Assembly: GCA_947643415.1 (NCBI GenBank)
Contig: CANRWA010000025.1
Span: 1-52,584, forward strand
Direction of reading: 5' to 3'
Length of the DNA: 52,584 nucleotides
From: an uncultured Clostridia bacterium
Lineage (GTDB): Bacteria; Bacillota; Clostridia; Lachnospirales; Lachnospiraceae
The notes below the pieces were generated by a model. The model was not told the DNA's origin. It saw nothing but the letters and a program-made list of their open reading frames with translations, and did not search any database. Shown here in pieces: positions 24,629 to 45,905 of this stretch. Position 1 is the first letter of the stretch. Every line of letters begins with the position of its first letter. A program made the position numbers and the translations under genes.

Positions 24629-24686
24629 GTAGATTTTGCCCTCCTTCCACAACGGATAACAAAATGTCTTTCCGCTTTCCTATATC

Positions 24687-25202: not shown

Positions 25203-25203
25203 A

Positions 25204-25428: not shown

Positions 25429-25464
25429 TTAATCATCCTCTCTTTCTATCACTTTTCTGTTTGG

Positions 25465-26061: not shown

Positions 26062-26091
26062 GCAATCATCCTCCTCTATATGCAGCACATT

Positions 26092-26313: not shown

Positions 26314-26363
26314 AGTTCATATCCTCCTTGTTCAAATAAGTTCTTATGGCAAGCTACTTTCTG

Positions 26364-28567: not shown

Positions 28568-28570
28568 AGT

Positions 28571-28801
28571 TTACTGCACCTTTCCTAATGTTATTTTTTT
28601 AACGGCACTAAGGGAATCCATCTGCAGGATATCCTCGAATTCATACTTGACACCAAATGCATTCTCAAGTTTCATAACCAGTGACATACTGGCAAGAGAA
28701 TCCCATTCCTCCATATTGTCACTATTCATATCATCATTAAGCTCCATATCTTCATCCAATTCCATAACTTCCCTAAATATTTCTTCTATTTTTTCTTTCA
28801 T
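28571..28801 (-). CDS. Discrete acyl carrier protein (EWDSL type)
   Basis: 76 residues with the phosphopantetheine Ser at residue 35 in MEEWDSLASM and very acidic helices 1 and 2. It lies immediately upstream of the AMP ligase, which is its likely loading enzyme. GAGGT precedes the ATG. Confidence 0.88.
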   Translation of the reverse strand: MKEKIEEIFREVMELDEDMELNDDMNSDNMEEWDSLASMSLVMKLENAFGVKYEFEDILQMDSLSAVKKITLGKVQ

Positions 28802-28807
28802 AATACC

Positions 28808-29626: not shown

Positions 29627-29656
29627 AGATGACCTCCTTCTTTAATTTCACAATAC

Positions 29657-30427: not shown

Positions 30428-30480
30428 CTATCTCCTCCTATTCCTTTCAGATTTCGGTGGGACAACACAAGGTACACCAA

Positions 30481-30705
30481 TCAACCCCCGCTTTTTTTTA
30501 CCAATTCCGCAATCGCCTCAAGAGAAACAAAATTCTCAGAACGTACATCTGTCCCCGCTATCAGACAACCAAACTCATTTTCTAATTCGCTTACCAGGGT
30601 CGTTATATCAAAAGAGTCCAGATATCCGTCTTCTATAAAATTTTCACTGCTTTCAAAATCAAATTCCGGTTCCAGTTCTTTTAATATATTAAGTATTTTA
30701 TCCAT
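30481..30705 (-). CDS. Discrete carrier protein (DltC-like, LDSF type)
   Basis: 74 residues with the attachment Ser at residue 31 in GYLDSFDIT. This motif is closer to D-alanyl carrier proteins (DltC) than to fatty-acid ACP. It stands right downstream of the amino-acid adenylation gene (30741), so the pair probably forms a loading unit for an amino acid. Confidence 0.85.
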   Translation of the reverse strand: MDKILNILKELEPEFDFESSENFIEDGYLDSFDITTLVSELENEFGCLIAGTDVRSENFVSLEAIAELVKKSGG

Positions 30706-30740
30706 GGATGATGCCTCCTTTTGAATATAATAGAATTTTT

Positions 30741-32267
30741 TTATCTACTATATATATATTGTTTTTTCAATTCTTTCCGGTCAATTTTGCCATTGTCATT
30801 ATATGGCATTTTATCTACTTTCCAGAATTCTTTTGGAATCATGTATTTGGGCAACAGGTTCTTCAGAAGCCTGCGAATCGCTATGTCATCAATTCCTTCT
30901 GTAGACTGGTAGACAGAAATAATCTTCTGATCATTCTCGTCATATAGGCAGCAGGCATTATCAATCCCATCGATACTAAGAATGGCTGTCTCAATTTCTC
31001 CCAGTTCAATTCGGTATCCTCTGTATTTAATCTGGAAATCCTTTCTCCCATCAAACATGATTTCGCCATACTGGTTGTAATGTGCCAAATCACCCGTATG
31101 ATAAATCTTCTCATCATAATAAGAATTCAATGGATTCTGTGTAAACACTTCCTGCGTTTTTTGAGGATTTCCATAATATCCCATTGCCAGGGAAGTTCCC
31201 CTGACACACAGCTCCCCCATTACATCTTTCTGTGTTATCTCATTTCCATCATCATCAAAAAGAATAATTTCTGTATTCCTGCACGCATTTCCAATCGGCA
31301 GCGGATCATCATCTGCAAATTCTCTATTTATACGGTAAAAAGAACAAACATCTGTTATCTCTGTAGGTCCATACAAATTTGCATATACCGCATCCGGCAA
31401 TACCTTTCTCCATATATTTAAATGTTTGTTTGGCATTACCTCCCCACAAAATAAAATTTTGTGAATGGATTTTAAATCAAACTGCTCCAGCAAACCGCTG
31501 TTCGCAGCTCCTACCAGCGCCGATGGAACCCAGAAAATAAACGTAATCTGTCTTTTTTCCAGGTAAGAGAGCAAATCAGCCTGTAATGCAAAATAGATTT
31601 CCGGCGTAATATAAAGCGTGGCGCCCCTGCTCATGCAAAGATATATGTCCAAAATTGAATTATCAAAATAGAAGGGCGCCTGGTTAGCGATCCTCTCATT
31701 TTCACCAATCGAAAATTCCTCCGCCGCCCAATCAATATAGTCTATAATGCTTCTCTGTGTGATTGATACCCCCTTCGGAACTCCAGTAGAACCGGAAGTA
31801 AAAAAGACATATGCCAAATCTGTATCAATAATCCTGTTTAAATATTGCTCTGAACAAAGATCTTTTTTCCCAAAGTCAATATCCTCCAGCAATAAAAGCA
31901 GTTTTTCCTCCACCCCATTTGCCAGAAGATTTTCAGCATTTTTCTTGTCCGTTACGATTAGTTGCGGCTCCAAACACTTAAGTATCCCCTCCACTTTTTG
32001 AAATGGAAACCTGACGTCTGTAGGTGTGTAATAATTTCCGCTATATAAAATAGCCGCAAAAGAAATCAGTATCTGAGTACCCTTTGGTAAATAAACTAAA
32101 ACCGGGCAATGCCTTTTCCCAAGACGATCGCCGATCACTTCCGCCAGACATAATGCCTGGTCCTTCCATTCACTGAATGTCACACTGTATTTTTCATCCG
32201 ATACCGCTAATTTGTCTGGAAAATTCTTAGCTGATTCTTCCAAATAACACAAAACTGAATTTTTCAT
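30741..32267 (-). CDS. Stand-alone amino-acid adenylation enzyme (DltA/NRPS A-domain type)
   Basis: This ~508-residue ANL enzyme has the NRPS-style core motifs: FFTSGSTGVPKG, the A4-like FYFDNSILDIY whose Asp usually holds an amino-acid amine, NLYGPTEITD, YHTGDLA, KYRGYRIELGEIE and NDNGKIDRKEL. It has no condensation or thioesterase domain. An ATG at 32285 is in frame, but its own codons form the GGAGG preceding the ATG at 32267, which I prefer. With the DltC-like carrier at 30481 it probably supplies an aminoacyl thioester to the left pathway. Specificity cannot be read safely. Confidence 0.85.
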   Translation of the reverse strand: MKNSVLCYLEESAKNFPDKLAVSDEKYSVTFSEWKDQALCLAEVIGDRLGKRHCPVLVYLPKGTQILISFAAILYSGNYYTPTDVRFPFQKVEGILKCLEPQLIVTDKKNAENLLANGVEEKLLLLLEDIDFGKKDLCSEQYLNRIIDTDLAYVFFTSGSTGVPKGVSITQRSIIDYIDWAAEEFSIGENERIANQAPFYFDNSILDIYLCMSRGATLYITPEIYFALQADLLSYLEKRQITFIFWVPSALVGAANSGLLEQFDLKSIHKILFCGEVMPNKHLNIWRKVLPDAVYANLYGPTEITDVCSFYRINREFADDDPLPIGNACRNTEIILFDDDGNEITQKDVMGELCVRGTSLAMGYYGNPQKTQEVFTQNPLNSYYDEKIYHTGDLAHYNQYGEIMFDGRKDFQIKYRGYRIELGEIETAILSIDGIDNACCLYDENDQKIISVYQSTEGIDDIAIRRLLKNLLPKYMIPKEFWKVDKMPYNDNGKIDRKELKKQYIYSR

Positions 32268-32311
32268 TCTGATCCTGTCCTCCATTCACTGTAATCATTT
32301 CTTCTTAATCC

Positions 32312-33346
32312 CTACAAATCCGTAGTAATATTTTCACAGAAAATAAAATTATTAAGTGTCAAAAAAGCCCCGCCCCACTCTGCTCCAAGACCATAACCAC
32401 AGATCAGGACGAAATGCCCATCCCCGCCAAGCAGCTCACTGCCATAATGATCAACAATGCCAATCGGATTTAACGTTGCACTCATATCTCCATATTTCGC
32501 AACCAGATCCATCGATACCCGGTCTTTATCAATTGCCAGTTTATCGGCAAATTTTCGAACGGACAATTCATTGGCCTGTATGAAAAAGAAGTGTTCCACT
32601 TCATTTAAATCCACGTGGGCATAATCTGCCAATTGCTGCACAAAATCTGGAACACGCTGTTGATAAAAAAGGAATGATTCTCTCGCAGTATCCAAGTGCA
32701 GATCACATTTCCCCGTATGATAAAGATCTGCATATGCGCCCTGCCGATTGGAAACCAGACTGCCTGCTTCCCCATTCGTTTTCATCATGAAGGGAATCTC
32801 ACAATCATATTCAGTATTCTCTACAATGGTTATGCTTGCCCCATCACCTCCATAGGGAGGAGTATCATATATTTCTTTTTCACCGTTCAACCGATTCCGC
32901 ACATCCCCGGTAAAAAGAAGGACTTTTTTATTTTCGTCCAGTGCCTCCAAAATGCAAAATGCCTGCATCAAGCCCTTTATGTACCCAGAGCATCCTGCCC
33001 AGGAATCAACCGTCAGGATATCTACAGGCAGTTCAAATGCCCCATGGATCTGATTTGATATATGCGGCACATAGTAATCCGGGCTGAAGGAAATTACAAG
33101 AATGGCTCCGATCTCCTCTTTTTCTATGTATCCCTTTTCCAAAAGGTACTGCATACCTTTTATACAAAGCTGCGCTGTCGTCGTGTCCTTTTTTGTCCGG
33201 TAACGTTTCCCATAACCCATATTCCTTTTTATCATTAAGTTGCGAGGGGTTGCTCCCCCTCTCATTTCCTCTTCAAAATCACATGAGGTTTCTGGCAAAA
33301 TGCCAAGAATACCCGAAATTCTTTTATTGCGGAATACCGTTTCCAT
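32312..33346 (-). CDS. KAS III-like protein with His and Asn lost
   Basis: This 344-residue KAS III homologue keeps the Cys (C119 in WAGCSGY), but the triad His is Ile (I256, FFFIQAN instead of FFHQAN) and the triad Asn is Asp (D287, KYGDMSA). It cannot run normal decarboxylative condensation. It lies directly after the intact paralogue 33358-34425 with 11 bases between them, and they share the early motif RxRTKKDT and the same C-terminal order. A heterodimer of active and inactive subunits (as in PqsBC or KS-alpha/CLF) or a Cys-dependent acyl transferase is likely. Start: ATG at 33346 with GAGGAGG six bases upstream. Confidence 0.85.
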   Translation of the reverse strand: METVFRNKRISGILGILPETSCDFEEEMRGGATPRNLMIKRNMGYGKRYRTKKDTTTAQLCIKGMQYLLEKGYIEKEEIGAILVISFSPDYYVPHISNQIHGAFELPVDILTVDSWAGCSGYIKGLMQAFCILEALDENKKVLLFTGDVRNRLNGEKEIYDTPPYGGDGASITIVENTEYDCEIPFMMKTNGEAGSLVSNRQGAYADLYHTGKCDLHLDTARESFLFYQQRVPDFVQQLADYAHVDLNEVEHFFFIQANELSVRKFADKLAIDKDRVSMDLVAKYGDMSATLNPIGIVDHYGSELLGGDGHFVLICGYGLGAEWGGAFLTLNNFIFCENITTDL

Positions 33347-33357
33347 AAAATGCCTCC

Positions 33358-34425
33358 TCAATATGCCGACTCAATCATCCTGCAGAAATCCATTTCCCCC
33401 AATTCCATCACCAGGGCCGCCCATGCAAGTCCGGCGCCAAATCCTGCCAGACAACAATATGTTTTCTCCTGCAACATAGCTTGCGAGGCATGATCTGTAA
33501 TTACCATAGGAATCGTTGAGGAATTTGAATTTCCATATTTTTCAACAAGATCCATAGGGGTTTTCTCTGTGGGGATACCCAACGAATCAACAAGTTTTTC
33601 TAAAATAAACCGATTCGGCTGATGAAAGAAATAGTAAGCCATATCTTCCTTCTCTTTACCTGCATCTTCCAAAATCTCATTTATCAAAGGCGGAACTTCC
33701 ATCTCAACAAAATTAAAAACAAAAGAGCCGTCCATCCACATTTTCATCCCGTTCCCAATTCTGCCATCCGGCAATACCACCTGCGCATCATCCACCGTAT
33801 ATACCGGATATTTAAAAGCGCCTGCCGGGATGATAAGATTTTCTCCCTGGCTCCCATCCGAATAAAACCGAAAATAAATCTCAGAATAATCTGTATTATT
33901 CTCAATCACACTGATTGAAGCTGCATCTCCTCCAAACGCAGGCTCCTCAGACTTCTCTTCATTCTCCCTCTCCCGGTTTAAAATATCTCCCGTAAACAGA
34001 AGAACCTTTTTGTCAGAGAGATGGTTCAGAAGCATAAACGCCTGTGCAAGCCCGACCACATAGCCGGCACATGCCTGAGGAATATCTATACATATTGTAT
34101 CTTCCGGAAAGCCGAATTCACCATGCAGAATATGGCTTACCTGTGGGATCAGGTAGTCCTGTGTCAATGTCACCACCACAATGGCTCCAATCTCTTCCTT
34201 ATTTATCATGTGATTTTCCAACATGTAAGAAAGTCCATATTTATATAGATCAGATACATTTGTATCCTTTTTTGTCCGGCGCCGTTTGTCAAAACCGATA
34301 ATCCTTTTTAGACGGCGTATACGGCTTACGCTTTCTGCCAGAATCGTATCTTCAAAGGAGCACTCATGTTCCGGCAGAACTGTTAAAATTCCAGAAATTT
34401 TTTTCCCTTTCCAAACCGCTTTCAT
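33358..34425 (-). CDS. KAS III (FabH-like) condensing enzyme, full triad
   Basis: This 355-residue KAS III has C119 in PQACAGY, H268 in YYFFHQPN and N299 in KYGNSNSST, so the triad is intact. It is the partner candidate for the degenerate KAS III that follows. Its ATG overlaps the stop of the LDSY-type carrier (ATGA), which suggests that carrier supplies or receives its acyl chain. Confidence 0.88.
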   Translation of the reverse strand: MKAVWKGKKISGILTVLPEHECSFEDTILAESVSRIRRLKRIIGFDKRRRTKKDTNVSDLYKYGLSYMLENHMINKEEIGAIVVVTLTQDYLIPQVSHILHGEFGFPEDTICIDIPQACAGYVVGLAQAFMLLNHLSDKKVLLFTGDILNRERENEEKSEEPAFGGDAASISVIENNTDYSEIYFRFYSDGSQGENLIIPAGAFKYPVYTVDDAQVVLPDGRIGNGMKMWMDGSFVFNFVEMEVPPLINEILEDAGKEKEDMAYYFFHQPNRFILEKLVDSLGIPTEKTPMDLVEKYGNSNSSTIPMVITDHASQAMLQEKTYCCLAGFGAGLAWAALVMELGEMDFCRMIESAY

Positions 34426-34661
34426 GCCGTCCCACCATTCCTCTGTATCGTTTTTACAATCCGCTCCAAACTCCGGAAATTATCTAAAATGATCTCCAAC
34501 CCATCAATTGACACATCAAATGTTTCTTCTATACGGGAGACCAGTTCAATCATATCATAGGAATCTAACAGTTCTTCACCAATGAAATTCTCGCTCTCCG
34601 TATAATCATTTTCAGGATGCATTTCTTTCAATATTTGTAACACCTTTTCTTCCATACTCAT
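34422..34661 (-). CDS. Discrete carrier protein (LLDSYD type)
   Basis: 79 residues with the attachment Ser at residue 34 in EELLDSYDMIEL. It is closely related to the carrier at 30481 (both have a long SENFI segment before the Ser). GGAGG precedes the ATG. It is the second gene of the left operon and overlaps the intact KAS III gene. Confidence 0.87.
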   Translation of the reverse strand: MSMEEKVLQILKEMHPENDYTESENFIGEELLDSYDMIELVSRIEETFDVSIDGLEIILDNFRSLERIVKTIQRNGGTA

Positions 34662-34733
34662 TATTTTTTCCTCCTAATATAATGCACCTGTATTTCGCAT
34701 GGTGCTTCTTTTTCTATATATAATCGGGATGTT

Positions 34734-35726
34734 TCAACACGGTCTGTCCTGGTCGCCGTCCCCCCGGAACATCCTAAGCCCATCCAACCGGGCATCAATT
34801 AATCTGATAGAAATATTTTCCCTCACAAATGGATGAAAATAATTGGGAATTATGTTCTCGCAGTTCTCATCACATCGGCAAAACCCGCCTTCTTCATATA
34901 TTTCTACCGGAACACCATAGGAATACACGTCTACAAATTCGTACCCTCTTTCCTCCATAAGACGGTCAAGTGCCTCTGCGATCTCTCCCAGATCTTCCAT
35001 CCTTCCATAATGGTCAATGATTTCACACACTTTACCACCTTCCGCCATCTCATCTCTGGTAACGAGGACAGAATGGGATTCATTATCAGGAGACACCACT
35101 TTCCATATATCATAATGAAAAACAGGATGCTGAAAATAGCGCTTCTCTATATAGGAATAATCTTTACACAAAATCCGTTCCGTCAGCTTCGTCTCCGGAA
35201 TGATCCGCTTCATTTCTTCCACTGCATGGATACTTTCCAGATGGCAGCCTGCTCCCGTTATTTTCGGAATAATTTTCGTTTTTACTGTCGCGACTTTATA
35301 ATTATCTATATCTGCCAAACGATAATAATGGTCCATCGCCACGACTTTTTTCCCACGCAACGTATGGATTCTGACTGTCTTGTCGCTAAATCCCAGTCCA
35401 AAACAATATCTCGCATTCAGTTTACGGAGCATATAATCATTCAATTCAAGCCCAAGAATGGGGTCACCGCTTTTTATTACCTGCCACGTGCATCCGGAAA
35501 CATCTGGATGATTGCTTTTATTGTATATAACAGCGCCGACCATCCCATAGATTTTTTTGCTATCCTCATCCACCCCGATGAACATATTGACTTTATCCTC
35601 ATCCACAAACTGCCACTCAAAAAAATCCCTGTCCTTTGCAAGAATATTTCCTGGTTTCCAGTGTTCATCCATGAACCGCATAATACCGGGGATATCTTCA
35701 AATACAGCTCTTCTTATTGTGATCAC
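34734..35726 (-). CDS. GNAT-like acyltransferase, first gene of left operon
   Basis: This 330-residue protein begins with a GNAT-like N-terminus (ITIRRAVFEDIPGIMRFMDEHW) and ends with RMFRGDGDQDRPC. Its homologue at 38265-39257 opens the right operon, has the same length and the same last ten residues (FRGDGDQDRPC), and by eye more than half the positions agree. The start is GTG at 35726 with GGAGGAG eight bases before. The role is not known; an N-acyltransferase acting on an amino sugar or amino lipid is a reasonable guess. The gene follows the leader hairpin at 35778-35808. Confidence 0.75.
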   Translation of the reverse strand: MITIRRAVFEDIPGIMRFMDEHWKPGNILAKDRDFFEWQFVDEDKVNMFIGVDEDSKKIYGMVGAVIYNKSNHPDVSGCTWQVIKSGDPILGLELNDYMLRKLNARYCFGLGFSDKTVRIHTLRGKKVVAMDHYYRLADIDNYKVATVKTKIIPKITGAGCHLESIHAVEEMKRIIPETKLTERILCKDYSYIEKRYFQHPVFHYDIWKVVSPDNESHSVLVTRDEMAEGGKVCEIIDHYGRMEDLGEIAEALDRLMEERGYEFVDVYSYGVPVEIYEEGGFCRCDENCENIIPNYFHPFVRENISIRLIDARLDGLRMFRGDGDQDRPC

Positions 35727-35777
35727 AGTATTGTCTCCTCCGCAAATTATGTTTATTAGCCGATTACCGCAACAATC

Positions 35778-35808
35778 AAAAAAAACTGTCCATATCTTCA
35801 GGCACAGT
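35778..35808 (-). terminator. Attenuator hairpin before the left operon
   Basis: On the minus strand ACTGTGCC (35801-35808) pairs with GGACAGT (35785-35791) with one bulged base, followed by eight Ts (complement of 35778-35785). It sits about 50-80 bases before the GTG of the first gene and after the recombination site, so transcripts entering from the invertible segment must pass it. A matching hairpin stands at 38196-38230. Confidence 0.75.
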
Positions 35809-35821
35809 CACTCTTTTCCCT

Positions 35822-35898
35822 TATTTCGTGCCTCCATGCATCTTTTTTGATTAAAGCATCCCTGCTAAAAGTTATCCTTAAGATAAAAACTTAAGGAT
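35822..35898 (-). repeat. Left inverted repeat with recombination core
   Basis: These 77 bp match 38109-38184 in inverted orientation with only two substitutions and one single-base indel. The inner end (35874-35898) is a perfect dyad of 9-bp arms, ATCCTTAAG and CTTAAGGAT, around a 7-bp spacer ATAAAAA, the layout of a tyrosine-recombinase crossover site. The outer ~51 bp form the 5' leader of the left operon and include a six-codon frame (35841 to 35821, M-H-G-G-T-K). Confidence 0.9.
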
Positions 35899-35927
35899 GT
35901 CCTGAACGGACTTATAAAAACAAAAAT

Positions 35928-35933
35928 ATTATA
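35928..35933 (-). promoter_or_regulatory. Possible -10 element firing out of the segment to the left
   Basis: TATAAT on the minus strand, 30 bp inside the left recombination core. No good -35 hexamer is found at 16-18 bp, so this is only a candidate for the promoter carried by the invertible segment. Confidence 0.3.
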
Positions 35934-36027
35934 TTGGGACGAAAGGATAAAGAATGGAAACATTAGAGTTTCTTTTTTCGAATCTGAATAATTTAAAACT
36001 AAGAAGCCATTCGCTAGACATGCCCCG

Positions 36028-36213
36028 GAACGTTTTTACCATGGATTTGTGTTGGGGCTGCTTGTAGATTAGGCAGACAGATATACCGTATCATCAAACT
36101 GGAAAAGCGGATATGGAAGATACGATGTGATGCTTGTTACGAAACAGCTTGGTGATGACGGTATTATCCTGGAATTCAAGATATATAAATCCCAAAAAAA
36201 ATTGATCAGGTAA
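36028..36213 (+). pseudogene. Remnant of an AAA-ATPase-like/PD-(D/E)XK nuclease gene
   Basis: The plus-strand frame reads ERFYHGFVLGLLVD, an in-frame TAG (36070-36072), then ADRYTVSSNWKSGYGRYDV, MLVTKQLGDDGIILEFKIYK and a stop at 36211-36213. This is the end of the common gut-Clostridia and Bacteroides family with an N-terminal AAA-ATPase-like and a C-terminal PD-(D/E)XK domain (the D of RYDV and the E-F-K motif are kept). Most of the gene is missing, so it is a decayed fragment. The preceding ~100 bases may hold more scrambled remains. Confidence 0.7.
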
Positions 36214-36856
36214 TATAGCATTCCAAAGGCTGTTTCTCTCCATGACCGGGGTATACCATTGTTCCAGGATTTAATGTCTGAAAATAGGGAAGGGTGATCT
36301 CTCTGTAATCTTTTTTGCTCCCCCCCGGCAATCTTGTTATGGTGGGATATCCTGTTACAAGGGAATCCCCAGAAAATAAAATATTCCTATCCAGCAAGAT
36401 ACAGATACTTCCTCTTGAATGTCCGGGGGTTCTTTTTAAGAAAAGAGAATGACCTTCCCAGGACATTTCCTTTTCCCCGGAAAAAGTACTGTCTGCTTTA
36501 CAGGAATATGGCTGTATATTCATATTGCGAACATATTCCTGTGTTTCTTTATCCTTTCCTACGAACAGGATTTCCCAAAAATTCGAAAGGTTATCCGATG
36601 GACTTTGCAGTGCTGCTGCACATTCTGAAGAGCACATTACATGGACTTTGGGAAAGTTCTCTCTCAGCCAGTTCACACCAGATATATGGTCATAGTGTTC
36701 ATGGGAGAGTAATACAAGAATCTCTGTTACATTGTTCTCTTGCAGTAACCGCAGTGCATCATCAGAGATACATGGATCGATGACCAGTGCCTTTTCATTT
36801 TCCAGAAGGACATACATTCTAGAGTCAATAGGGTAAAAATCATAAGTATATATCAT
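36206..36856 (-). CDS. MBL-fold metallohydrolase inside the invertible segment
   Basis: This 216-residue metallo-beta-lactamase-fold protein has the metal site HEHYDH (with LLSHEHYDHISGV), H in TPGHSRGSI, D in FSGDSLV and H in VYPGHGE. It is closest to glyoxalase II-like thioester or lactone hydrolases. I start it at ATG 36856, since a TATAAT (36881-36886) lies upstream and the longer frame would overlap the promoter; GGAG is 11 bases before. Being on the invertible segment, it points to the left operon now and would point to the right one after inversion. It may hydrolyse a thioester made by the pathways. Confidence 0.85.
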   Translation of the reverse strand: MIYTYDFYPIDSRMYVLLENEKALVIDPCISDDALRLLQENNVTEILVLLSHEHYDHISGVNWLRENFPKVHVMCSSECAAALQSPSDNLSNFWEILFVGKDKETQEYVRNMNIQPYSCKADSTFSGEKEMSWEGHSLFLKRTPGHSRGSICILLDRNILFSGDSLVTGYPTITRLPGGSKKDYREITLPYFQTLNPGTMVYPGHGEKQPLECYIT

Positions 36857-36880
36857 AGCTATCAGTTCTCCTTTTTTCAT

Positions 36881-36910
36881 ATTATACACTCTTATTGCCA
36901 TCATGCGCAA
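36881..36910 (-). promoter_or_regulatory. Promoter of the MBL gene
   Basis: Minus-strand TTGCGC (36905-36910), 18 bp, TATAAT (36881-36886). No terminator is visible between the MBL stop and the left core, so transcription from here could continue into the left operon leader. Confidence 0.5.
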
Positions 36911-37040
36911 TATTTTTTAGAAATTCAATCGGTGCGCAGGATTTTGAAGAATTGATCACAAAAAATGTTTTTATATTGCTCTGAATATGAATATGCTGGA
37001 ACGGTTCTTCAGCCTGCAATATAAAGGGCAGGGAGAGATT

Positions 37041-37068
37041 TTTGTGAGACATGCCAAGATGCTATAAT
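37041..37068 (+). promoter_or_regulatory. Promoter of the recombinase gene
   Basis: TATAAT at 37063-37068 on the plus strand with a weak -35 (TTTGTG, 16 bp upstream). It is divergent from the MBL promoter and 26 bp before the ATG. No terminator separates the recombinase from the right repeat. Confidence 0.5.
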
Positions 37069-37093
37069 ACATTCAAAAACGGAGGACAAGACT

Positions 37094-38071
37094 ATGATGA
37101 AAACAGAAAAGAAAACAATGACAGTAGAAAGCTGGATCCGAATATGGCAGGATGAAAACCGAAACTTTGTTAAAGAATCTACATTCGCCACATATTCTGT
37201 AACGATCGAGAATCATATACTTCCCTATTATGGGAAGCGTGAATTACAGGATATCAGCCATGAAGACAATCAGGAATTTATTCTCTTCCTTTCCAGAAAG
37301 AAAAGAAAAGATAGATCAGGATATTTATCATCAAAGGCGGTAAAGGATATCATGACTTTATGGTTGGGAATTTTAGGAAAAGCAGAACGGATGGGATACG
37401 TAAATCTGGGGAAAGTCCGGTATCAGTATCCTGCGCCCCGCAACCGGCAGAACATGCGAAAAGAAAACTTCTTGACTTTGCAGGAGGAATTTGAGATAAT
37501 AAATTGTCTTAAAAATCAGAAATCCTTAAAAAGCCTTGGCGTGGCACTAGCACTGGCGACAGGGATGCGGATCGGGGAGGTATGTGCACTCCGCTGGGAA
37601 TGTATTGATATTCAAAGAGGGCTGATCCATGTAAATAAGACATTACAGCGGATATATACAAAAGAAAATGGCATAGGGAAGAGTAAGGTAATCGTATCTG
37701 CTCCCAAATCCCTTAAATCAGACCGGTATCTTCCGCTGCCACAAGAGTATCTGTCCATTATTAAGGAACATCGGGCAGCTCCGTTTGCCTATCTGTTAAC
37801 CGGTAAAGTGGACAAATTCATCGAACCCCGTACATTGCGTGCGTATTATGACCGATTGATGGAAAAGAATGGAACTCGTTATGTAACTTTTCATGGTCTG
37901 AGACATACATTTGCTACCCGGCTGGTTGAGAGTGGCTGTGATTATAAGACAATCAGTGAATTATTGGGACATGCAGATATCAATACTACGTTTCGTACTT
38001 ATGTCCATAGTGATATGGATAAAAAACGGCAATTTGTGGAAAAGGCCAGAAAAATGATTGAAGCCACTTAA
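37094..38071 (+). CDS. Tyrosine site-specific recombinase (probable invertase)
   Basis: This 325-residue integrase-family protein has a SAM-like core-binding domain (about 10-105) and a catalytic domain with R159 (ATGMRIGEV), H267 and R270 (FHGLRHTF), H293 (LLGHADINT) and nucleophile Y303 (TYVH). The set is complete. The stop is 38 bp before the right recombination core, and both cores flank the gene in inverted orientation, so it most likely inverts the segment that contains it. It is of the size of phase-variation invertases and XerD-like enzymes. There is no excisionase or other phage gene nearby. GGAGG stands before the ATG ATG start. Confidence 0.92.
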   Translation: MMKTEKKTMTVESWIRIWQDENRNFVKESTFATYSVTIENHILPYYGKRELQDISHEDNQEFILFLSRKKRKDRSGYLSSKAVKDIMTLWLGILGKAERMGYVNLGKVRYQYPAPRNRQNMRKENFLTLQEEFEIINCLKNQKSLKSLGVALALATGMRIGEVCALRWECIDIQRGLIHVNKTLQRIYTKENGIGKSKVIVSAPKSLKSDRYLPLPQEYLSIIKEHRAAPFAYLLTGKVDKFIEPRTLRAYYDRLMEKNGTRYVTFHGLRHTFATRLVESGCDYKTISELLGHADINTTFRTYVHSDMDKKRQFVEKARKMIEAT

Positions 38072-38108
38072 GAAAAGACAACTTCTGTCCGATATAGAAT
38101 CTGTATAT

Positions 38109-38184
38109 ATCCTTAAGTTTTTATCTTAAGGATAACTTTTAGCAGGGATGCTTTAACCAAAAAAATGCATGGAGGCACGGAATA
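38109..38184 (+). repeat. Right inverted repeat with recombination core
   Basis: This is the 76-bp partner of 35822-35898. Its core (38109-38133) is ATCCTTAAG, spacer TTTTTAT, CTTAAGGAT. The following 51 bp form the leader of the right operon, nearly identical to the left leader, and hold a six-codon frame (38165-38185, M-H-G-G-T-E, stop TAG). The asymmetric spacer gives the two sites opposite polarity, which predicts inversion rather than deletion. Confidence 0.9.
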
Positions 38185-38195
38185 GTAATAATATA

Positions 38196-38230
38196 AAACT
38201 GTGTCCATTGGTTGGGCACAGTTTTTATTT
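38196..38230 (+). terminator. Attenuator hairpin before the right operon
   Basis: AAACTGTGTCCA (38196-38207) pairs with TGGGCACAGTTT (38213-38224) over 12 pairs with one G-U, followed by a short T-run. It is 35 bases before the ATG at 38265. Its place and kind match the left hairpin, while the loop sequence differs. Confidence 0.8.
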
Positions 38231-38264: not shown

Positions 38265-39257
38265 ATGGTTACAATAAGAAGGGCTGTGTATGATGATATC
38301 CCCAATATTATGCGGTTCATGGATGAACATTGGAAGAAAGGAAATGTCCTTGCCACAAATCGTGATTTTTTTGAATGGCAGTTCGTAGATGATGATAAGG
38401 TTAATATGTTCCTTGGCATTGATGAAAATAGTGGCAGGATATACGGCATGCTTGGTGTGATCATATACAGTAAATGTGCAAAACCTGATCTTTCTTGCTG
38501 CACCTGGCAGACGATCAAAAGTGACAATCCAATGCTTGGTGTAGAACTGGTAAATTATATGTTTATGCAGTTACGCCCAAGGTATGTCAGTTCTGCAGGA
38601 CTCACAAAAAAGTCGGTAAGGATATATGAACTGAAGGGACGAATCCCGGCATCAATGGATCATTATTACCGTCTTTCTGACAGGGAGGATTATCAGATCG
38701 CCAAAGTACAGAATAAAAGAATACCTGTTGTGAAAGAGAGCGGATACCGCCTACATCTCATCCATTCTGTGGCAGAGATGAAAAAGATCATCCCAGAAGA
38801 AACACTTTCTGGACAGATCCTGAGCAAGGACTACTCATACATAGAAAAACGCTATTTTAAACACCCCATATATCATTATGATCTATGGGAAATTCTTGAT
38901 ACAAATAAAAACTCCCGCTCTATCCTTGTGACAAGAGATGAAACACTGCGGAATTGTAACATATGCAAAATCGTTGATTACTATGGCAATTTAGATGACC
39001 TGCGGTATATAACGTCAGAATTGGACCGGTTAATGGAAGAACGGAATTATGAATTTATTGACATATATTCTTATGGAGTACCAACGGACCTATATGAACA
39101 GGCGGGATTCTGCCATTGTGATGAAACCAGTGAAAATATTATTCCAAATTACTTTCATCCATTTGTACAGGAAAATATAACCTTAAGAATGCTGGAATCC
39201 AAGGTTCCGGGATTGCGATTATTCCGGGGCGATGGCGACCAGGACCGGCCATGTTAA
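38265..39257 (+). CDS. GNAT-like acyltransferase, first gene of right operon
   Basis: 330 residues, homologous over the whole length to 34734-35726 of the left operon (VTIRRAVYDDIPNIMRFMDEHW at the start, same FRGDGDQDRPC end, shared KDYSYIEKRYF in the middle). Same uncertain GNAT-type role. AGGGGGA lies eight bases before the ATG. The first-gene homology with divergent remainder suggests a shared last or first reaction on both products. Confidence 0.75.
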   Translation: MVTIRRAVYDDIPNIMRFMDEHWKKGNVLATNRDFFEWQFVDDDKVNMFLGIDENSGRIYGMLGVIIYSKCAKPDLSCCTWQTIKSDNPMLGVELVNYMFMQLRPRYVSSAGLTKKSVRIYELKGRIPASMDHYYRLSDREDYQIAKVQNKRIPVVKESGYRLHLIHSVAEMKKIIPEETLSGQILSKDYSYIEKRYFKHPIYHYDLWEILDTNKNSRSILVTRDETLRNCNICKIVDYYGNLDDLRYITSELDRLMEERNYEFIDIYSYGVPTDLYEQAGFCHCDETSENIIPNYFHPFVQENITLRMLESKVPGLRLFRGDGDQDRPC

Positions 39258-39321
39258 ATCAGAATATAAAGATGATGGAATCTTTATAGAATATAAAAAC
39301 TAAAAAGAGAGGTAAGATAAA

Positions 39322-39543
39322 ATGACAGGTAAAGAAAAAATCGAGTTTCTGGAAGAGATCATGGATGTAGATGAGGGAACATTAACAGAAGATACTGTTC
39401 TGGCAGATGTGGAAGAATGGGATTCTCTGAGTACATTATCTTTAATTGCAGAAATGAAAAAAAGATATGACCTGAAACTTACTGCAGATATCATCAAAGG
39501 ATTTCAGACAGTATCTGATATTTGCCAGTATATCCCTGAATAA
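39322..39543 (+). CDS. Discrete acyl carrier protein (EWDSL type)
   Basis: 73 residues with the attachment Ser at residue 35 in VEEWDSLSTL. Close to the EWDSL carriers of the left operon. It lies directly before the KAS III-SDR fusion, its probable client. AGAGAGGT precedes the ATG. Confidence 0.88.
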   Translation: MTGKEKIEFLEEIMDVDEGTLTEDTVLADVEEWDSLSTLSLIAEMKKRYDLKLTADIIKGFQTVSDICQYIPE

Positions 39544-39556
39544 TAGGAGGAAAAAA

Positions 39557-41257
39557 ATGATTGGCGAATTTTCTAATGTTAAGATCCAGGGGATGGCATC
39601 AGCAGTACCAGAATATACTGAGGAAAATACAAACTATGTAAATATTCTTGGTCCTAGGAGAACCAAAAAACAGATCCAGCTTACCGGGGTTTCAAAACGG
39701 CATATTTCAGGGCATCATCAGCGGACATCTGATCTGTGCTATGCGGCAGCTTGTCCGCTGCTGGAGAAACTAAACTGGAAAAGTGATGAGATCAAAGTCC
39801 TGATCTATATTACGCAAGGTCCCAATTATATCCTGCCATCCACTGCTTTCTTTCTTCAGCACAGATTAGGCATCCCAAAGGATTGTGTCTGCTTTGATAT
39901 CAACCTGGGCTGCTCTAGTTTTAATGTTGGTGTCCATGTGGTTTCGGCACTGTTACAATCCTGTGATGTATCTGATAAGGCTCTTCTTCTAATCGGTGAT
40001 ACGGCAAGCAAGGTACTCTACCCAGAGGAGCCAATGACAGAAGACGCAATTGCTGGCAGAATGATCTTTGGAGCGGCAGGAGCGGCTATTGCGCTGGAAA
40101 AGGTAGAACAAAGCAATCTAAAGTTTATGACGAAATCAGATGGGAATGGATTCGAAGCAATCATACGCCACTATGGCAAGGGAACGACAATGGACGGCAC
40201 TGCCGTATTTGAATTTGCCATAAATGATGTATCCGATGATGTTAATGTATTTAAAGACCATTTTGGTTTAAAGGAAGAAGATATTGATTATTATGTCTTT
40301 CACCAAGCACAGAAACTGATTCTGGATAATATCGCTGCAAATTGTAAATTTCCAGAAGAAAAAGAACTCCGTTCATTAGAGGAATATGGAAACACGTCAG
40401 GAACTTCCGTCCCTCTGACAGTATGTGCTAACCTGAACCGATTCTCTGATAAGGAACGCGTCAAACTATTCCTTTGTGGTTTTGGTGTAGGGCTTTCATG
40501 GGGAACTATCTTTGCCGAAGTACCAACGGAAAATATTCTACCGGTAATTGAAACAAATGAGCATTATGATGATGATAAAATACCAGCTGATAAACTGGCT
40601 GAAAGCAACATTCTGGTCATTGGGGCAGACCAAATGATGGGAGAAAACATCAGTCGGTATCTTAGCAGCAGATCAGCGAATGTAATCCTGTCTGGATTTG
40701 ATGCGCACAAATTGTATGATATTAAAGAAGATCTATTCTTTGAGTCTCATGTCATAGTGCATGACAAATCAGATCCGTCTCAGTCTGATTCTATTGTACA
40801 GTATTGCTTAGAAAACAACATTTGCCTACATGGAATTGTTTTTGCCGATAAAAATATGGCATCTGATAAGATCCATGATCTCTGCCTAAGACTGCAGGGA
40901 AATGAAATTCTGCAGACAGAGGGTGTCAGTATCGTACTTACTTCCGATATGGAAAGCTTGCGCACTCAGGACAGTGAAATATATTACAAAGAAAAGACAG
41001 CACTGGAAAATATCCTGTCTGGGATTCAGGAAGATATTGATGATGAACGTATCCGCGTCAATGCTGTTACATATGATGAGGAAAAGCTGGATCTGACACA
41101 GATCACAGGAAACGGGCAGGAATGGATCGAAAAATTTCTGCAGGAAGGATGCCCATCAGAAATGAACCGTCCCCTGTATATTGGCAGGACACTGGTTTAT
41201 CTGTTATGCAGTGATTCTCAGTATACAACCGGTTTACTGGTTCCTATCAATCGATAA
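39557..41257 (+). CDS. KAS III fused to a degenerate SDR-like domain
   Basis: This is a 566-residue two-domain protein. Residues about 1-330 are a KAS III with full triad: C119 (LGCSSFN), H249 (VFHQAQ), N279 (YGNTSGTS). Residues about 345-566 have the SDR strand order and end (YTTGLLVPINR), but the glycine-rich NAD(P) motif reads VIGADQMMGEN rather than TGASxGIG. A Ser (VLTSDMES) and a YxxxK (YYKEK) are kept. The SDR domain is therefore a doubtful reductase and may be structural or bind another cofactor. A normal SDR follows directly at 41278, which may supply the activity. AGGAGG precedes the ATG. Confidence 0.85.
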   Translation: MIGEFSNVKIQGMASAVPEYTEENTNYVNILGPRRTKKQIQLTGVSKRHISGHHQRTSDLCYAAACPLLEKLNWKSDEIKVLIYITQGPNYILPSTAFFLQHRLGIPKDCVCFDINLGCSSFNVGVHVVSALLQSCDVSDKALLLIGDTASKVLYPEEPMTEDAIAGRMIFGAAGAAIALEKVEQSNLKFMTKSDGNGFEAIIRHYGKGTTMDGTAVFEFAINDVSDDVNVFKDHFGLKEEDIDYYVFHQAQKLILDNIAANCKFPEEKELRSLEEYGNTSGTSVPLTVCANLNRFSDKERVKLFLCGFGVGLSWGTIFAEVPTENILPVIETNEHYDDDKIPADKLAESNILVIGADQMMGENISRYLSSRSANVILSGFDAHKLYDIKEDLFFESHVIVHDKSDPSQSDSIVQYCLENNICLHGIVFADKNMASDKIHDLCLRLQGNEILQTEGVSIVLTSDMESLRTQDSEIYYKEKTALENILSGIQEDIDDERIRVNAVTYDEEKLDLTQITGNGQEWIEKFLQEGCPSEMNRPLYIGRTLVYLLCSDSQYTTGLLVPINR

Positions 41258-41277
41258 AGAATATTAGAGGTGAGTAT

Positions 41278-41991
41278 ATGGCAAAAAAGATATTGATAAC
41301 AGGAGCTTCCTCCGGAATCGGGGAACAGACGGCACGATACCTGTCCGAGCAAGGTTATGAGACTATTTTAGTAGCAAGAAATGCAGAAAAACTAAATCGT
41401 ATGGCAGAAGAACTTCCTTCAACAACTTATACTTTTCCAATGGATCTGTCAGAACTTGAGAAAATAGAAGAAATATATCAATTCTGCCAAAAAAACGGAA
41501 TCATTCTGGACGGTCTGGTACATTGCGCCGGACTCGCCAGACACTATGCTGTAAAAATGAATGATATCGATGATATGCATATGACATTTCGTGTTAATTA
41601 TGATGCATTTGTGGAATTAGTCAAGTTTTTTTCCATGAGGAAATATTCCAAAAAAGGTTCCAGTGTTATTGTAATGTCATCTTTATCTGCCATAACATGC
41701 CGGGCATCTACATTGAATTACTCAGCCTCAAAGGCAGCATTAAATGCGGCAGTAAAAGTTATGGCAAAAGAATTAGGAAGAAGATCGATACGTGTAAATT
41801 CTCTTTTACCTGGTTATGTGATCACTCCCATGACATCGGATGAGAGTCTGGCAGCTGATGTGGATAAAAGCCAGCCTTTAGGCTTTATTGAACCAGAATA
41901 CATTGCATATATGATTGAATTTTTACTATCAGATAAATCCAAATATATTACAGGGGCTAATATTCCAATTAGTGCCGGAATGAACTTTTAA
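41278..41991 (+). CDS. SDR-family ketoacyl reductase (FabG-like)
   Basis: 237 residues with TGASSGIGEQ, catalytic Ser in VIVMSSLSA and Tyr-Lys in NYSASKAAL. It is a paralogue of the left-operon SDRs and stands 20 bases after the KAS III-SDR fusion. AGAGGTG precedes the ATG. Confidence 0.88.
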   Translation: MAKKILITGASSGIGEQTARYLSEQGYETILVARNAEKLNRMAEELPSTTYTFPMDLSELEKIEEIYQFCQKNGIILDGLVHCAGLARHYAVKMNDIDDMHMTFRVNYDAFVELVKFFSMRKYSKKGSSVIVMSSLSAITCRASTLNYSASKAALNAAVKVMAKELGRRSIRVNSLLPGYVITPMTSDESLAADVDKSQPLGFIEPEYIAYMIEFLLSDKSKYITGANIPISAGMNF

Positions 41992-42005
41992 CTGGAGGGC
42001 CAAAC

Positions 42006-44039
42006 ATGATTAAAACAGAGGATCTTTTTGACCATTATAAAAAAGTCATAGTATGGGGCGCGGGAAATGGATTCACAAAATACTATGAGAACGGATATGA
42101 CATTTCGTATATTGTGGACTCTGATATGTCAAAGTGGGGCAGAAATATATCAGGGCTTAGCGTTGAGCCGCCACAGGAAATATTAAGAGAAGATGTAGAT
42201 ACTACAGCCGTGGTCATTTGTTCTGTGTTTGAAACAGACATATATAATCAGGCAAGGCATATGGGGATCCGCTGTGATATCTATTCAGCAAAGATGCTAT
42301 TCCCGAATCCTTTTTCTGATAATAGCTATTATGCCTTACCTGAATTTATCGAGGATAAACCTTTTACGGGCAGTTATTCAATTGAGAAAAATACCCAGAT
42401 ACTGCTTGCCTTGATGAAAGCCCACGAAATCAAAAAAATTGTGATTAGTCCAGGCGGAACAAATATATGTTTTGTATCCAGCATCCAGTCTGACCCTTTT
42501 TTTGAAATTTACTCTTCCAGTGATGAACGTTCCGCAGCCTATATTGCCTGTGGCCTTGCTGCAGAAAGCGGTGAACCAGTTGCCATTAACTGCACAGGTG
42601 CTACTGCTTCCAGGAATTATATGCCGGGCCTGACAGAAGCATATTATAGGAAATTACCTATATTAGCCATTACATGCAGTCAATACCTTGGGAAAATTGG
42701 TCATAATAACCCACAAGTTACAGACCGTATCCATTTACCAACAGATGTGGCAAAACTTAGTGTACAACTGCCAGTGATCAGGACCGGGCAAGACCAGTGG
42801 TGCTGTGAGGCCAACGTAAACCATGCATTGATTGAATTAAGAAGACATGGCTGCGGTCCTGTCCATATTAACCTTATGACAGAATTCCGCAACGACCGTT
42901 CCATAAAAGCTCTGCCCGCTGTCAAAGTAATCCGGCATATCAGTTATAATGATCCATTGCCAGTGATAGAAAGCGGACGAATCGGTATTCTGGCAGCCGC
43001 CCACAAGCGGTGGAGTGATGAACTGACCGCCAGTGTTGAAGCATTCTGTGAAAAATATAACGCTGTAGTATTATGTGATCAAACAAGTAATTACCGAGGA
43101 AAATATCATGTTCTGGCTCCTCTTCTACTGACGCAAAAGGTAGTTGCCGAAAAAGAGAGTTCATTTGACCTTCTGATCCATATAGGAGATATCACTGGTG
43201 CTTATATGAAAATAAATGCCAAACAGATCTGGCGAGTTAATCCAGATGGAGAAATCCGGGACACATTTACAAGACTTCGATATGTATTTGAAATGGAAGA
43301 ACAGGAATTCTTTATCAAATATGCCAGATTGGAAATCAGTGCTGATAAATATTTTGGTGATGGCATTCAGGCTGAGAGGTGGCAAAAAAGATATCAGGAA
43401 CTTTATAGTAAGATACCAGAATTACTATATTCAAATAAATGGGTAGCGAAAGAAACTGCACCACTCATTCCGGAAGATTCTATTCTTTACCTGGGAATCT
43501 TAGATTCCCTGAGAAGCTGGAATCTATATGAAGTACACAGATCTGTTACGGTATATGCTAATACCGGTGGATTTGGCATTGAAGGAGGAATGTCATCTTT
43601 ACTTGGCTGTTCATTAAACAATCCCGAAAAGCTGTGTTTTGGAGTTTTTGGTGATTTAGGATTTTTTTGCGATATGAATGTTCTCGGCAACCGTCATTTA
43701 GGTAAAAACTTAAGAATAATGATTGTAAATAATGGCTCTGGAGCTGAGTTCTATGCGAAAAACAGTTTCTATAGTGCTTTATTTGGAAAAACAGTAGGAA
43801 AGTACTGTGCTGCGGAAGGACATTTTGGAAATAAATCTAAACAACTTGTAAGAGACCTTGCCAGGAATCTAGGTTTTGACTACATGAGTGCCGAGACAAA
43901 AGAAGAATACCGGGCTGTGGTAAAGGCTTTCACAAATCCGGTTATTGGAGAAAAACCAATGATTATTGAGATCTTTACCAATAGCTGGGATGAAGCAGAA
44001 CAAAGAGAAATAATAGAAACACTGGGACAGGAGAATTAA
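42006..44039 (+). CDS. ThDP-dependent MenD-like enzyme with N-terminal Rossmann module
   Basis: This is a 677-residue fusion. Residues about 1-110 form a PglD-like Rossmann module (VIVWGAGNGFTKYY, ISYIVDSD, TTAVVICSVF). Residues about 130-670 are a thiamine-diphosphate enzyme of the MenD type: Pyr domain with IVISPGGTNICF and the ThDP-activating Glu in SSSDERSAAYIACGLA, and PP domain with the cofactor motif FGDLGFFCDMNVL ending in MIVNNG. ThDP enzymes of this class decarboxylate a 2-oxo acid and add the acyl anion to an acceptor. No succinyl-menaquinone gene is near, so another acceptor is likely. GGAGG precedes the ATG. Confidence 0.85.
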   Translation: MIKTEDLFDHYKKVIVWGAGNGFTKYYENGYDISYIVDSDMSKWGRNISGLSVEPPQEILREDVDTTAVVICSVFETDIYNQARHMGIRCDIYSAKMLFPNPFSDNSYYALPEFIEDKPFTGSYSIEKNTQILLALMKAHEIKKIVISPGGTNICFVSSIQSDPFFEIYSSSDERSAAYIACGLAAESGEPVAINCTGATASRNYMPGLTEAYYRKLPILAITCSQYLGKIGHNNPQVTDRIHLPTDVAKLSVQLPVIRTGQDQWCCEANVNHALIELRRHGCGPVHINLMTEFRNDRSIKALPAVKVIRHISYNDPLPVIESGRIGILAAAHKRWSDELTASVEAFCEKYNAVVLCDQTSNYRGKYHVLAPLLLTQKVVAEKESSFDLLIHIGDITGAYMKINAKQIWRVNPDGEIRDTFTRLRYVFEMEEQEFFIKYARLEISADKYFGDGIQAERWQKRYQELYSKIPELLYSNKWVAKETAPLIPEDSILYLGILDSLRSWNLYEVHRSVTVYANTGGFGIEGGMSSLLGCSLNNPEKLCFGVFGDLGFFCDMNVLGNRHLGKNLRIMIVNNGSGAEFYAKNSFYSALFGKTVGKYCAAEGHFGNKSKQLVRDLARNLGFDYMSAETKEEYRAVVKAFTNPVIGEKPMIIEIFTNSWDEAEQREIIETLGQEN

Positions 44040-44040
44040 A

Positions 44041-45902: not shown

Positions 45903-45905
45903 TGT

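What the first reader, a model, noticed from the sequence alone, without database searches (positions are those of the whole stretch)
35822..38184. A recombinase-driven inversion switch between two divergent acyl-biosynthesis operons
Seen: near-identical inverted repeats (77 and 76 bp, three differences) flank a complete tyrosine recombinase, and long operons leave both ends in opposite directions. Known: invertible promoters next to such recombinases cause phase variation in gut anaerobes, most often at capsule and surface loci. Inferred: here the switch would choose between two different KAS III/carrier-protein pathways, which I do not know as a described arrangement. Each orientation would couple a different internal promoter to each operon.
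Basis: partly seen in the sequence, partly recalled or inferred. Interest (0 to 1): 0.95.

Follow-up and report, generated by a model that had tools for sequence, protein, structure and literature searches.

The report
Flagellar-promoter flip switch between glycan operons
A gut-type bacterium appears to carry a flippable piece of DNA, with its own flipping enzyme and one flagella-type 'on' signal, placed between two sets of sugar- and acyl-making genes, so that only one set is used at a time, probably changing the chemical coat of its flagella.

Summary
Inverted repeats (35822-35898, 38109-38184) bound a 2.2-kb segment with an intact tyrosine recombinase, between two divergent acyl operons. 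Each repeat is a 25-bp core (ATCCTTAAG-N7-CTTAAGGAT) plus outward leader.

Six further genomes of the genus (Lachnospiraceae) keep recombinase and core. The 7-bp spacer differs between genomes but matches between both arms in 7 of 7. Orientation relative to 93-97% identical operons differs between genomes, so inversion is very likely.

Each of 7 elements carries exactly one outward TAAG-N15-TCCGATAT, 12-13 bp inside the core at the recombinase 3' end. Similar sites precede 6 of 11 flagellin genes tested and FlgM: a sigma-28 (SigD/FliA) promoter. So one operon, not both, should be on.

In some relatives the operons lead into NeuB-type nonulosonic-acid genes and share a contig with flagellin. 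In G028 the two arms reach different NeuBs (29% identical). G034 has promoter and leader without recombinase, beside flagellin.

Best reading: a sigma-28-driven either/or switch between two flagellin-glycan/acyl pathways; Hin-like logic, unrelated recombinase. Inversion 0.88, promoter 0.85, flagellin target 0.65-0.7. No in vivo data; the window itself lacks NeuB and flagellin.

The parts
35822..35898 (-). Left inverted repeat: 25-bp core site (35874-35898) plus outward leader sequence
38109..38184 (+). Right inverted repeat: 25-bp core site (38109-38133) plus outward leader sequence
35899..38108 (.). Invertible segment (2210 bp between the cores)
37094..38071 (+). Tyrosine recombinase, 325 aa, proposed to invert the segment
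   Evidence: orthologues 69-84% in 6 same-genus genomes
37060..37068 (+). Possible recombinase promoter: extended -10 TGCTATAAT (read by eye)
   Evidence: TGTTATAAT between core and recombinase start in the 4 short elements, by eye
38069..38095 (+). Outward sigma-28 (SigD/FliA)-type promoter TAAG-N15-TCCGATAT, overlapping the recombinase stop codon, 13 bp inside the right core
36206..36877 (-). Cargo gene in the segment: metallo-beta-lactamase-fold protein; no match to it in the ORF comparison of six relatives' loci
35777..35873 (-). Leader of the left operon with terminator-like hairpin and alternative pairing (attenuator-like, inferred)
38134..38229 (+). Leader of the right operon, same conserved elements
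34734..35726 (-). First gene of the left operon: tandem-GNAT-fold acyltransferase homologue, 330 aa
   Evidence: fold modelled on its paralogue
22257..35726 (-). Left operon (same-strand run): GNAT-like, ACPs, KAS III, AMP-ligases, SDRs, hexapeptide-type acyltransferases (the last by eye)
38265..39257 (+). First gene of the right operon: tandem-GNAT-fold acyltransferase homologue, 59% identical to the left one
38265..52511 (+). Right operon to the contig end: GNAT-like, ACP, KAS III-SDR fusion, SDRs, TPP enzyme, FrhB/DUF6270, pyruvyl-transferase-like, AMP-ligase, KAS III, aldo-keto reductase
   Evidence: pyruvyl-transferase-like by eye

Best explanation
The segment 35899-38108 is a site-specific inversion switch. 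Its tyrosine recombinase (37094-38071) recombines the two inverted 25-bp cores and flips the segment with its own gene. At the recombinase 3' end the segment carries one outward promoter for the flagellar sigma factor sigma-28 (38069-38095). As assembled it faces the right operon (38265 on); inverted, it would face the left operon (35726 down). Transcripts start at or just before the core and pass a leader with a terminator-like hairpin, then a tandem-GNAT acyltransferase gene and an ACP/KAS III/SDR/AMP-ligase set. From relatives, these operons make and attach acyl groups to nonulosonic-acid sugars that decorate flagellin. The cell would thus choose one of two flagellin-glycan programmes, used only when the flagellar class-3 regulon is on. 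Shown by sequence: cores, recombinase, promoter motif and its conservation, different orientations across genomes, linkage to NeuB and flagellin in some relatives. Inferred: inversion in living cells, sigma-28 transcription, silence of the other operon, attenuation, flagellin as the target, chemistry of the products.
For: Cores flank the recombinase in 7 of 7 elements; the spacer has four forms (ATAAAAA, ATGGAAA, ATGAAAA, ATAGAAA) but is identical between the two arms in 7 of 7. Orientation: a 4104-bp operon stretch 93.0% identical lies at the recombinase 5' side in G016 and the 3' side in G020; in G024 both outer junctions are swapped relative to G016 (66 of 71 and 53 of 54 bases), with both operons shared. 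One TAAG-N15-TCCGATAT per element, outward at the same end, 7 of 7; over 10 loci TAAG and CCGATAT never vary while 11 of the 15 spacer columns do. TAAR-N14-16-NCCGATAW precedes 6 of 11 flagellin genes tested, and FlgM. FliA_WhiG over cut-off in 38 of 39 genus genomes. NeuB, cytidylyltransferase or PseB-like genes follow in the operons of G005, G028 and G016; in G028 both arms have a NeuB, 29.5% identical to each other. Flagellin on the switch contig in G005, G028 and G025. G034: same promoter and leader, no recombinase at E <= 1e-30, acyl operon 2.2 kb from flagellin and near fliS/fliD. Enterobacterial flagellin glycosylation islands also hold ACP, CoA-ligase and FabG genes (PMC4875605, passages).
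Against: No reads or several strains of one species were available, so flipping within a population is not shown. In G016/G020 the other flank is not the same operon (no match listed), so exchange of operons instead of inversion is not excluded there; in G024 the scaffold looks misjoined. The window's operons contain no NeuB and its contig no flagellin; NeuB in this genome lies on C103 and C18. Flagellin was not seen on the scanned parts of the switch contigs of G000, G001, G016, G020 and G024: 3 of 8 have it. The promoter pattern gives 20 hits in the genome against 11 for its reversed control; 13 of the 20 lie in stop-to-stop frames over 200 aa, the FlgM site among them. 5 of 11 flagellin genes tested lack it. 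FliA is in nearly all genus genomes, so it does not discriminate. The -35 TAAG overlaps the recombinase stop codon (G034 keeps it without a recombinase), and several of the ten aligned sites come from close relatives. Five of 16 outer flanks lack the leader. Read-through from the MBL gene might feed the left operon.
Confidence: 0.7

Rival explanations
1. The same inversion switch, with the sigma-28 promoter, but the acyl/nonulosonic products go to another surface glycan (capsule, teichoic acid, lipid) and not to flagellin.
For: The window has no flagellin or NeuB, and dTDP-rhamnose-type genes (17152-20774, by eye) lie beyond the left operon. More distant recombinase relatives (38-42%) sit among polysaccharide-type genes (judged by eye from ORF starts) in 3 of 5 loci examined, G394, G166 and G311.
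Against: The promoter is of the flagellar class. G034 places the operon in a fliD-fliS-flagellin cluster; G005, G028 and G025 link it to flagellin. Those five distant relatives show no sigma-28 site within 1.5 kb of the recombinase.
Confidence: 0.2
2. A generic inversion switch whose outputs come from promoters at both ends, so that both operons are always transcribed at different levels.
For: The MBL gene reads toward the left end with no terminator-like site found between it and the core; the recombinase seems to have its own promoter.
Against: No shared outward motif was seen at the other end (by eye); sigma-70-like sites in the region are at the shuffled expectation (11 versus 10.7). The one conserved outward motif is sigma-28-like in 7 of 7. 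The short elements leave little room beyond the recombinase promoter.
Confidence: 0.07
3. The recombinase is a remnant or slow element; inversion or operon exchange has happened in evolution, but it is not an active phase switch.
For: No population data. Decayed or locked forms exist: G025 (recombinase fragments, one core), G017 (degenerate core, no recombinase), G034 (no recombinase).
Against: Intact reading frame and catalytic motifs, arm-matched spacers in 7 of 7, swapped orientations at 93-97% identity, and two contigs of G062 that stop inside the core, one on each side.
Confidence: 0.08

Closest known systems
Salmonella Hin/hix-fljBA flagellar phase variation
   Same: Recombinase gene and outward promoter share one invertible segment; orientation decides flagellar surface chemistry (Hin: passages of PMC9368917; that fljBA is sigma-28-dependent is recalled).
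   Different: Hin is a serine recombinase and switches one operon encoding a flagellin plus a repressor; here a tyrosine recombinase faces two divergent biosynthetic operons.
Clostridioides difficile flagellar switch (RecV, flgB operon)
   Same: Clostridial tyrosine recombinase, inverted repeats, flagellar control (passages of PMC5386303).
   Different: 154-bp segment with 21-bp repeats, acting after transcription initiation on the early flagellar operon including sigD; on/off motility rather than a choice of glycan (same passages).
Tyrosine-recombinase promoter inversions at capsule/surface loci (Bacteroides Mpi, invertons)
   Same: Invertible-promoter logic; a distant relative of this recombinase (G394) has a 28-bp inverted repeat between divergent glycosyltransferase-like genes.
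   Different: Here the promoter is of the sigma-28 class and the outputs are acyl/nonulosonic operons; Mpi acts on at least 13 scattered switches (passage of PMC5386303).
Phase-variable flagellin glycosylation in Campylobacter jejuni
   Same: Nonulosonic-acid decoration of flagellin that varies (title and start of abstract of PMC3068675 in a search listing).
   Different: There a homopolymeric tract in a single gene; here inversion between two whole operons.
Enterobacterial flagellin glycosylation islands
   Same: ACP, CoA-ligase, FabG and related fatty-acid genes within flagellin glycan loci (passages of PMC4875605).
   Different: No invertible segment was mentioned in the four passages seen.

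Membership tests
Tyrosine recombinase (Phage_integrase family) | Catalytic domain with R, HxxR, H/W, Y residues | tested here: met
   Pfam 7.5e-32; motif strings starting at residues 155, 267, 292, 301
Site-specific inversion switch (inverton) | Inverted crossover sites bounding a promoter-bearing segment | tested here: met
   (promoter by motif only)
Site-specific inversion switch (inverton) | Both orientations observed | tested here: inconclusive
   Different orientations between genomes, not within one strain or population
Sigma-28 (SigD/FliA) promoter | TAAA/G-N14-16-(G/T)CCGATAW at a position able to drive the gene (consensus recalled) | tested here: met
   also upstream of 6 of 11 flagellin genes and FlgM
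Sigma-28 (SigD/FliA) promoter | Transcription lost without the sigma factor | not testable with these tools
   needs a fliA/sigD deletion
Salmonella Hin system | Serine recombinase of the DNA-invertase family | tested here: not met
   The recombinase is a tyrosine recombinase
Flagellin glycosylation locus | Nonulosonic-acid genes in the operon | tested here: inconclusive
   Met in G005, G028, G016; not in the window's own operons
Flagellin glycosylation locus | Linkage to flagellin genes | tested here: inconclusive
   3 of 8 switch contigs, plus recombinase-less G034; absent in the window
Flagellin glycosylation locus | Glycan demonstrated on flagellin | not testable with these tools
   needs mass spectrometry

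The most novel reading that the evidence does not exclude
A convergent counterpart of Salmonella H-phase variation in Lachnospiraceae: a tyrosine-recombinase cassette flips a single sigma-28 promoter between two divergent operons that make different nonulosonic acids with different ACP-derived acyl groups, so the flagellum's sugar coat, not its protein, is swapped as a whole programme, with an attenuator leader adding a second control layer.
Probability: 0.55. Interest if true: 0.9.

Novelty: new variant of a known kind. Interest (0 to 1): 0.8.

Why it matters
Flagellins of gut bacteria are seen by the host immune system and by flagellum-binding phages. An either/or switch of whole glycan pathways, tied to the flagellar regulon, would be a way to change that surface without changing the flagellin protein. 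It also makes a clear, cheap prediction (orientation decides flagellin glycan mass) and gives a conserved core sequence with which to look for such switches in metagenome reads.

Tried and rejected
Generic sigma-70 scan of 35500-38500: 11 promoter-like sites versus 10.7 expected, uninformative. Rfam at gathering scores on the whole window: only a tRNA, so the leader matched no described family there. Pfam and NCBIfam gave no hit for the two 330-aa first genes; Foldseek gave tandem-GNAT and N-myristoyltransferase folds, query TM 0.42-0.54 in the 50 rows listed, so it names a fold and not a substrate. FliA presence as a discriminator between genomes with and without the switch failed, 38 of 39 have it. 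A mobile element: disfavoured, because in the loci seen the recombinase sits beside such operons and the sites are inverted with matched asymmetric spacers. NeuB sub-type: NeuB and PseI models both score below their curated cut-offs in 4 of 4 proteins, so the sugar is not assigned. Leader covariation is weak: 1 of 22 pairs has a two-sided change; the attenuator is an inference from hairpin, T-run and conservation.

Ten literature searches showed no such arrangement among the titles and abstract starts listed: searches (0 papers; 5 of 5 listed; 15 of 107; 15 of 79; 3 of 3; 12 of 33; 0; 0; 10 of 2172), 76 (4 of 4). Open-access papers only, and the unlisted ones were not seen. Four papers were looked into, by passages only.

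Dropped before counting: of 7 Flagellin_N hits in G000, 5 were tested for an upstream motif; C62:21303 and C39:16618 were not. Of 16 outer flanks, 9 went into the leader alignment; G005 right and G024 right hold a cut-short version, and 5 (G001 left, G016 right, G020 right, G024 left, G025) lack it.

Full report
OBSERVATION. The inverted repeats are real. The inner 25 bp are a near-palindromic core, ATCCTTAAG-ATAAAAA-CTTAAGGAT (35874-35898), whose exact reverse complement is at 38109-38133. With up to 3 mismatches the core pattern has no third place in the 4.6-Mb, 230-contig draft genome; the pattern read backwards has four. The window is a whole contig (C25) of that genome. Between the cores lie 2210 bp with an intact tyrosine recombinase (37094-38071 +) and a metallo-beta-lactamase-fold gene (36206-36877 -). 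The repeat does not extend inward of the core; outward it is the leader of the two operons.

THE OPERONS. 'Operon' here means a same-strand gene run. Both begin with 330-aa paralogues, 59% identical, without Pfam or NCBIfam match. AlphaFold2 on the right one, in an alignment of 13 homologues (mean pLDDT 86.4), and Foldseek give a tandem-GNAT fold: bacterial tandem GNATs and N-myristoyltransferases, query TM 0.42-0.54 in the rows listed. Then come acyl carrier proteins, KAS III enzymes, SDR reductases and AMP-ligases on both sides (ACPs by eye). The left operon adds two hexapeptide-type acyltransferases (by eye); the right one a TPP enzyme, an FrhB/DUF6270 protein and an aldo-keto reductase, and it runs off the contig end.

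THE ELEMENT IS A CONSERVED FAMILY. Orthologues at 69-84% occur in 6 further genomes of the genus (7 of 37 same-genus genomes searched, the own one counted; E 1.7e-152 or better). The best of 24 same-order genomes is 1.9e-45, 34%. In 7 of 7 the core flanks the recombinase as an inverted pair. The full 25-bp cores agree between arms in 5 of 7; G016 differs at one base and G005 at two, all outside the spacer. The 7-bp spacer has four forms across genomes, yet the two arms of one genome agree in 7 of 7. Matched spacers are what tyrosine recombinases need for strand exchange (established knowledge), so this speaks for working sites. The cargo differs: MBL here, other genes in G005 and G028 (AAA-type and PIN-like by eye), none in four short elements of 1069-1089 bp. 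Divergent ACP/KAS III operons are visible on both sides in G000, G005, G028, G016 and G020; in G001 one side and in G024 the other is cut by the contig end.

ORIENTATION. G016 and G020 share a GNAT-SDR-ACP-SDR operon (4104 bp, 93.0%); in G016 it lies at the recombinase 5' side, in G020 at the 3' side. Their other operons do not match, so operon exchange is an alternative. G016 and G024 share both operons (8680 bp at 96.5%, 5032 bp at 94.2%) and the element (95%), but the short outer junctions of the G024 element are swapped: left 66 of 71 bases like the G016 right, right 53 of 54 like the G016 left and 54 of 54 like the GNAT leader elsewhere in G024. The G024 scaffold has an N next to a third core and probably a misjoin. 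In G062 two contigs stop inside the core, one on each side, and no recombinase is found at E <= 1e-30. Mixed orientations would do this to an assembler, but other causes are possible.

THE PROMOTER. Each of the 7 elements has exactly one match to TAAR-N14-16-NCCGATWW on either strand: TAAG-N15-TCCGATAT, outward at the recombinase 3' end, 12-13 bp before the core. In the window it is 38069-38095. With the dead-recombinase locus G025 and the recombinase-less loci G034 and G017, ten sites align with TAAG and CCGATAT invariant and 11 of 15 spacer columns variable; several come from close relatives, so they are not ten independent events. From recall this is the Bacillus SigD/FliA consensus (TAAA-N15-GCCGATAT). 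Check in the organisms: the pattern precedes 6 of 11 flagellin genes tested in G000, G005, G028 and G025 (spacers 14-16; 5 lack it) and FlgM, the anti-sigma-28 factor (Pfam 2.5e-16). In the whole genome there are 20 matches against 11 for the reversed pattern, and 13 of the 20 lie in stop-to-stop frames over 200 aa, so a match alone is weak; what counts is position, conservation and company. FliA_WhiG is over cut-off in 38 of 39 genus genomes. The recombinase seems to have its own promoter (TGCTATAAT here, TGTTATAAT in 4 short elements; by eye).

THE LEADER. Of 16 outer flanks, nine were aligned and share TGCA(T/C)GGAGGCAC..AAT and a terminator-like hairpin followed by a T-run. Two more hold a cut-short version and five lack it. 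GGCAC can also pair with the hairpin's 5' arm, so an attenuator is likely; covariation is weak (1 of 22 pairs). A model of the nine hits 10 of 39 genus genomes and, in G000, only these two leaders, among the candidates scored.

WHAT THE OPERONS ARE FOR. In relatives the same-strand runs continue into nonulosonic-acid genes: NeuB+SAF, cytidylyltransferase and DUF4910 in G005; NeuB (both arms), cytidylyltransferase, PseB-like and aminotransferase in G028; NeuB, cytidylyltransferase, PseB-like and a sulfotransferase in G016. The two G028 NeuBs are only 29.5% identical; the left one groups with G016/G024 (85-86%), the right one with G005 (79%). PDB relatives are sialic-acid and pseudaminic-acid synthases, but NCBIfam cut-offs are not reached, so the sugar is unnamed. 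Flagellin genes lie on the switch contig in G005 (about 29 kb away, with fliD/fliS/flgK/flgL), G028 (about 15 kb) and G025 (about 14 kb from the remnant); none was seen on the scanned parts of the other five (G000 and G020 whole; G001 2.5-13.1 of 13.1 kb; G016 34-122 of 127 kb; G024 1-64 of 104 kb). The clearest case is G034: no recombinase, but the promoter motif and leader in front of a GNAT-led acyl operon that starts 2.2 kb from a flagellin gene, itself preceded by a sigma-28 motif, in a row with fliS and fliD. In the window's genome a flagellin gene is followed by LicD and probable aminoethylphosphonate genes, the same set as next to the switch remnant of G025. Enterobacterial flagellin glycosylation islands contain ACP, CoA-ligase and FabG genes (PMC4875605, passages). 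Against this: the window's own operons hold no NeuB and its contig no flagellin.

MECHANISM. Shown: sites, recombinase, one conserved outward promoter motif, different orientations among genomes, company of NeuB and flagellin in part of the relatives. Inferred: active flipping; sigma-28 transcription of whichever operon faces the recombinase 3' end; silence of the other; acylated nonulosonic acids on flagellin. As assembled, the right operon would be on.

COMPARISON. It works like Salmonella Hin, with recombinase and promoter on one segment and a flagellar surface change (PMC9368917 passages), but fails Hin's defining serine recombinase. The C. difficile flagellar switch uses a tyrosine recombinase but a 154-bp segment acting after initiation on the early flagellar operon (PMC5386303 passages). 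The nearest recombinases in a draw of 396 other genomes of the family (5 at E <= 1e-60, 38-42%) show no sigma-28 site within 1.5 kb; three sit among polysaccharide-type genes (by eye), and one, G394, has a clear repeat, 28 bp, between divergent glycosyltransferase-like genes. So the sigma-28 version may be a specialisation of a polysaccharide-type switch. None of the papers listed in ten searches (see Tried and rejected) describes, in what was seen, an invertible promoter choosing between flagellin-glycan operons; the library is open-access only and long lists were seen in part.

VERDICT. New variant of a known kind; interest 0.8.

Noticed in passing
L039 6585-6619 and 7870-7904 (G000 contig C27): A second tyrosine recombinase of the same genome (about 32% identical) flanked by a 35-bp inverted repeat (94%), between two divergent large proteins that look secreted: another likely inversion switch.
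   Followed up: partly
L038 6833-7669 (G000 contig C19): A 36%-identical recombinase beside glycosyltransferase-like genes; no flanking repeat was reported by the script used.
   Followed up: partly
window 46412-47583: A pyruvyl-transferase-like gene of the right operon is split into two ORFs in different frames; either sequencing error or a broken gene.
   Followed up: partly
window 32312-33361: This KAS III homologue keeps the Cys motif but has FFIQA and YGDMS where its paralogues have the His and Asn motifs, so it may not be a normal condensing enzyme.
   Followed up: partly
L121 8393-8420 and 9803-9830 (G394): A related recombinase with a 28-bp inverted repeat (TCCTAAAG-N7-CTTTAGGA type core) between divergent glycosyltransferase-like genes: a likely polysaccharide switch.
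   Followed up: partly
L096 10375-15306 (G000 contig C17): A very long flagellin-like ORF (1643 aa) follows a 689-aa flagellin in tandem; this genome has 7 Flagellin_N hits.
   Followed up: no
L053 13947-13971 (G024 contig C8): A third core site about 24.7 kb from the second, in the same orientation, next to an N; more likely a scaffolding artefact than a true third site.
   Followed up: partly
L112 7337-10310 (G000 contig C103): NeuB, a PseG-like gene (by eye) and an aminotransferase fragment run into this contig's end; it could be the continuation of the right operon but this was not shown.
   Followed up: partly
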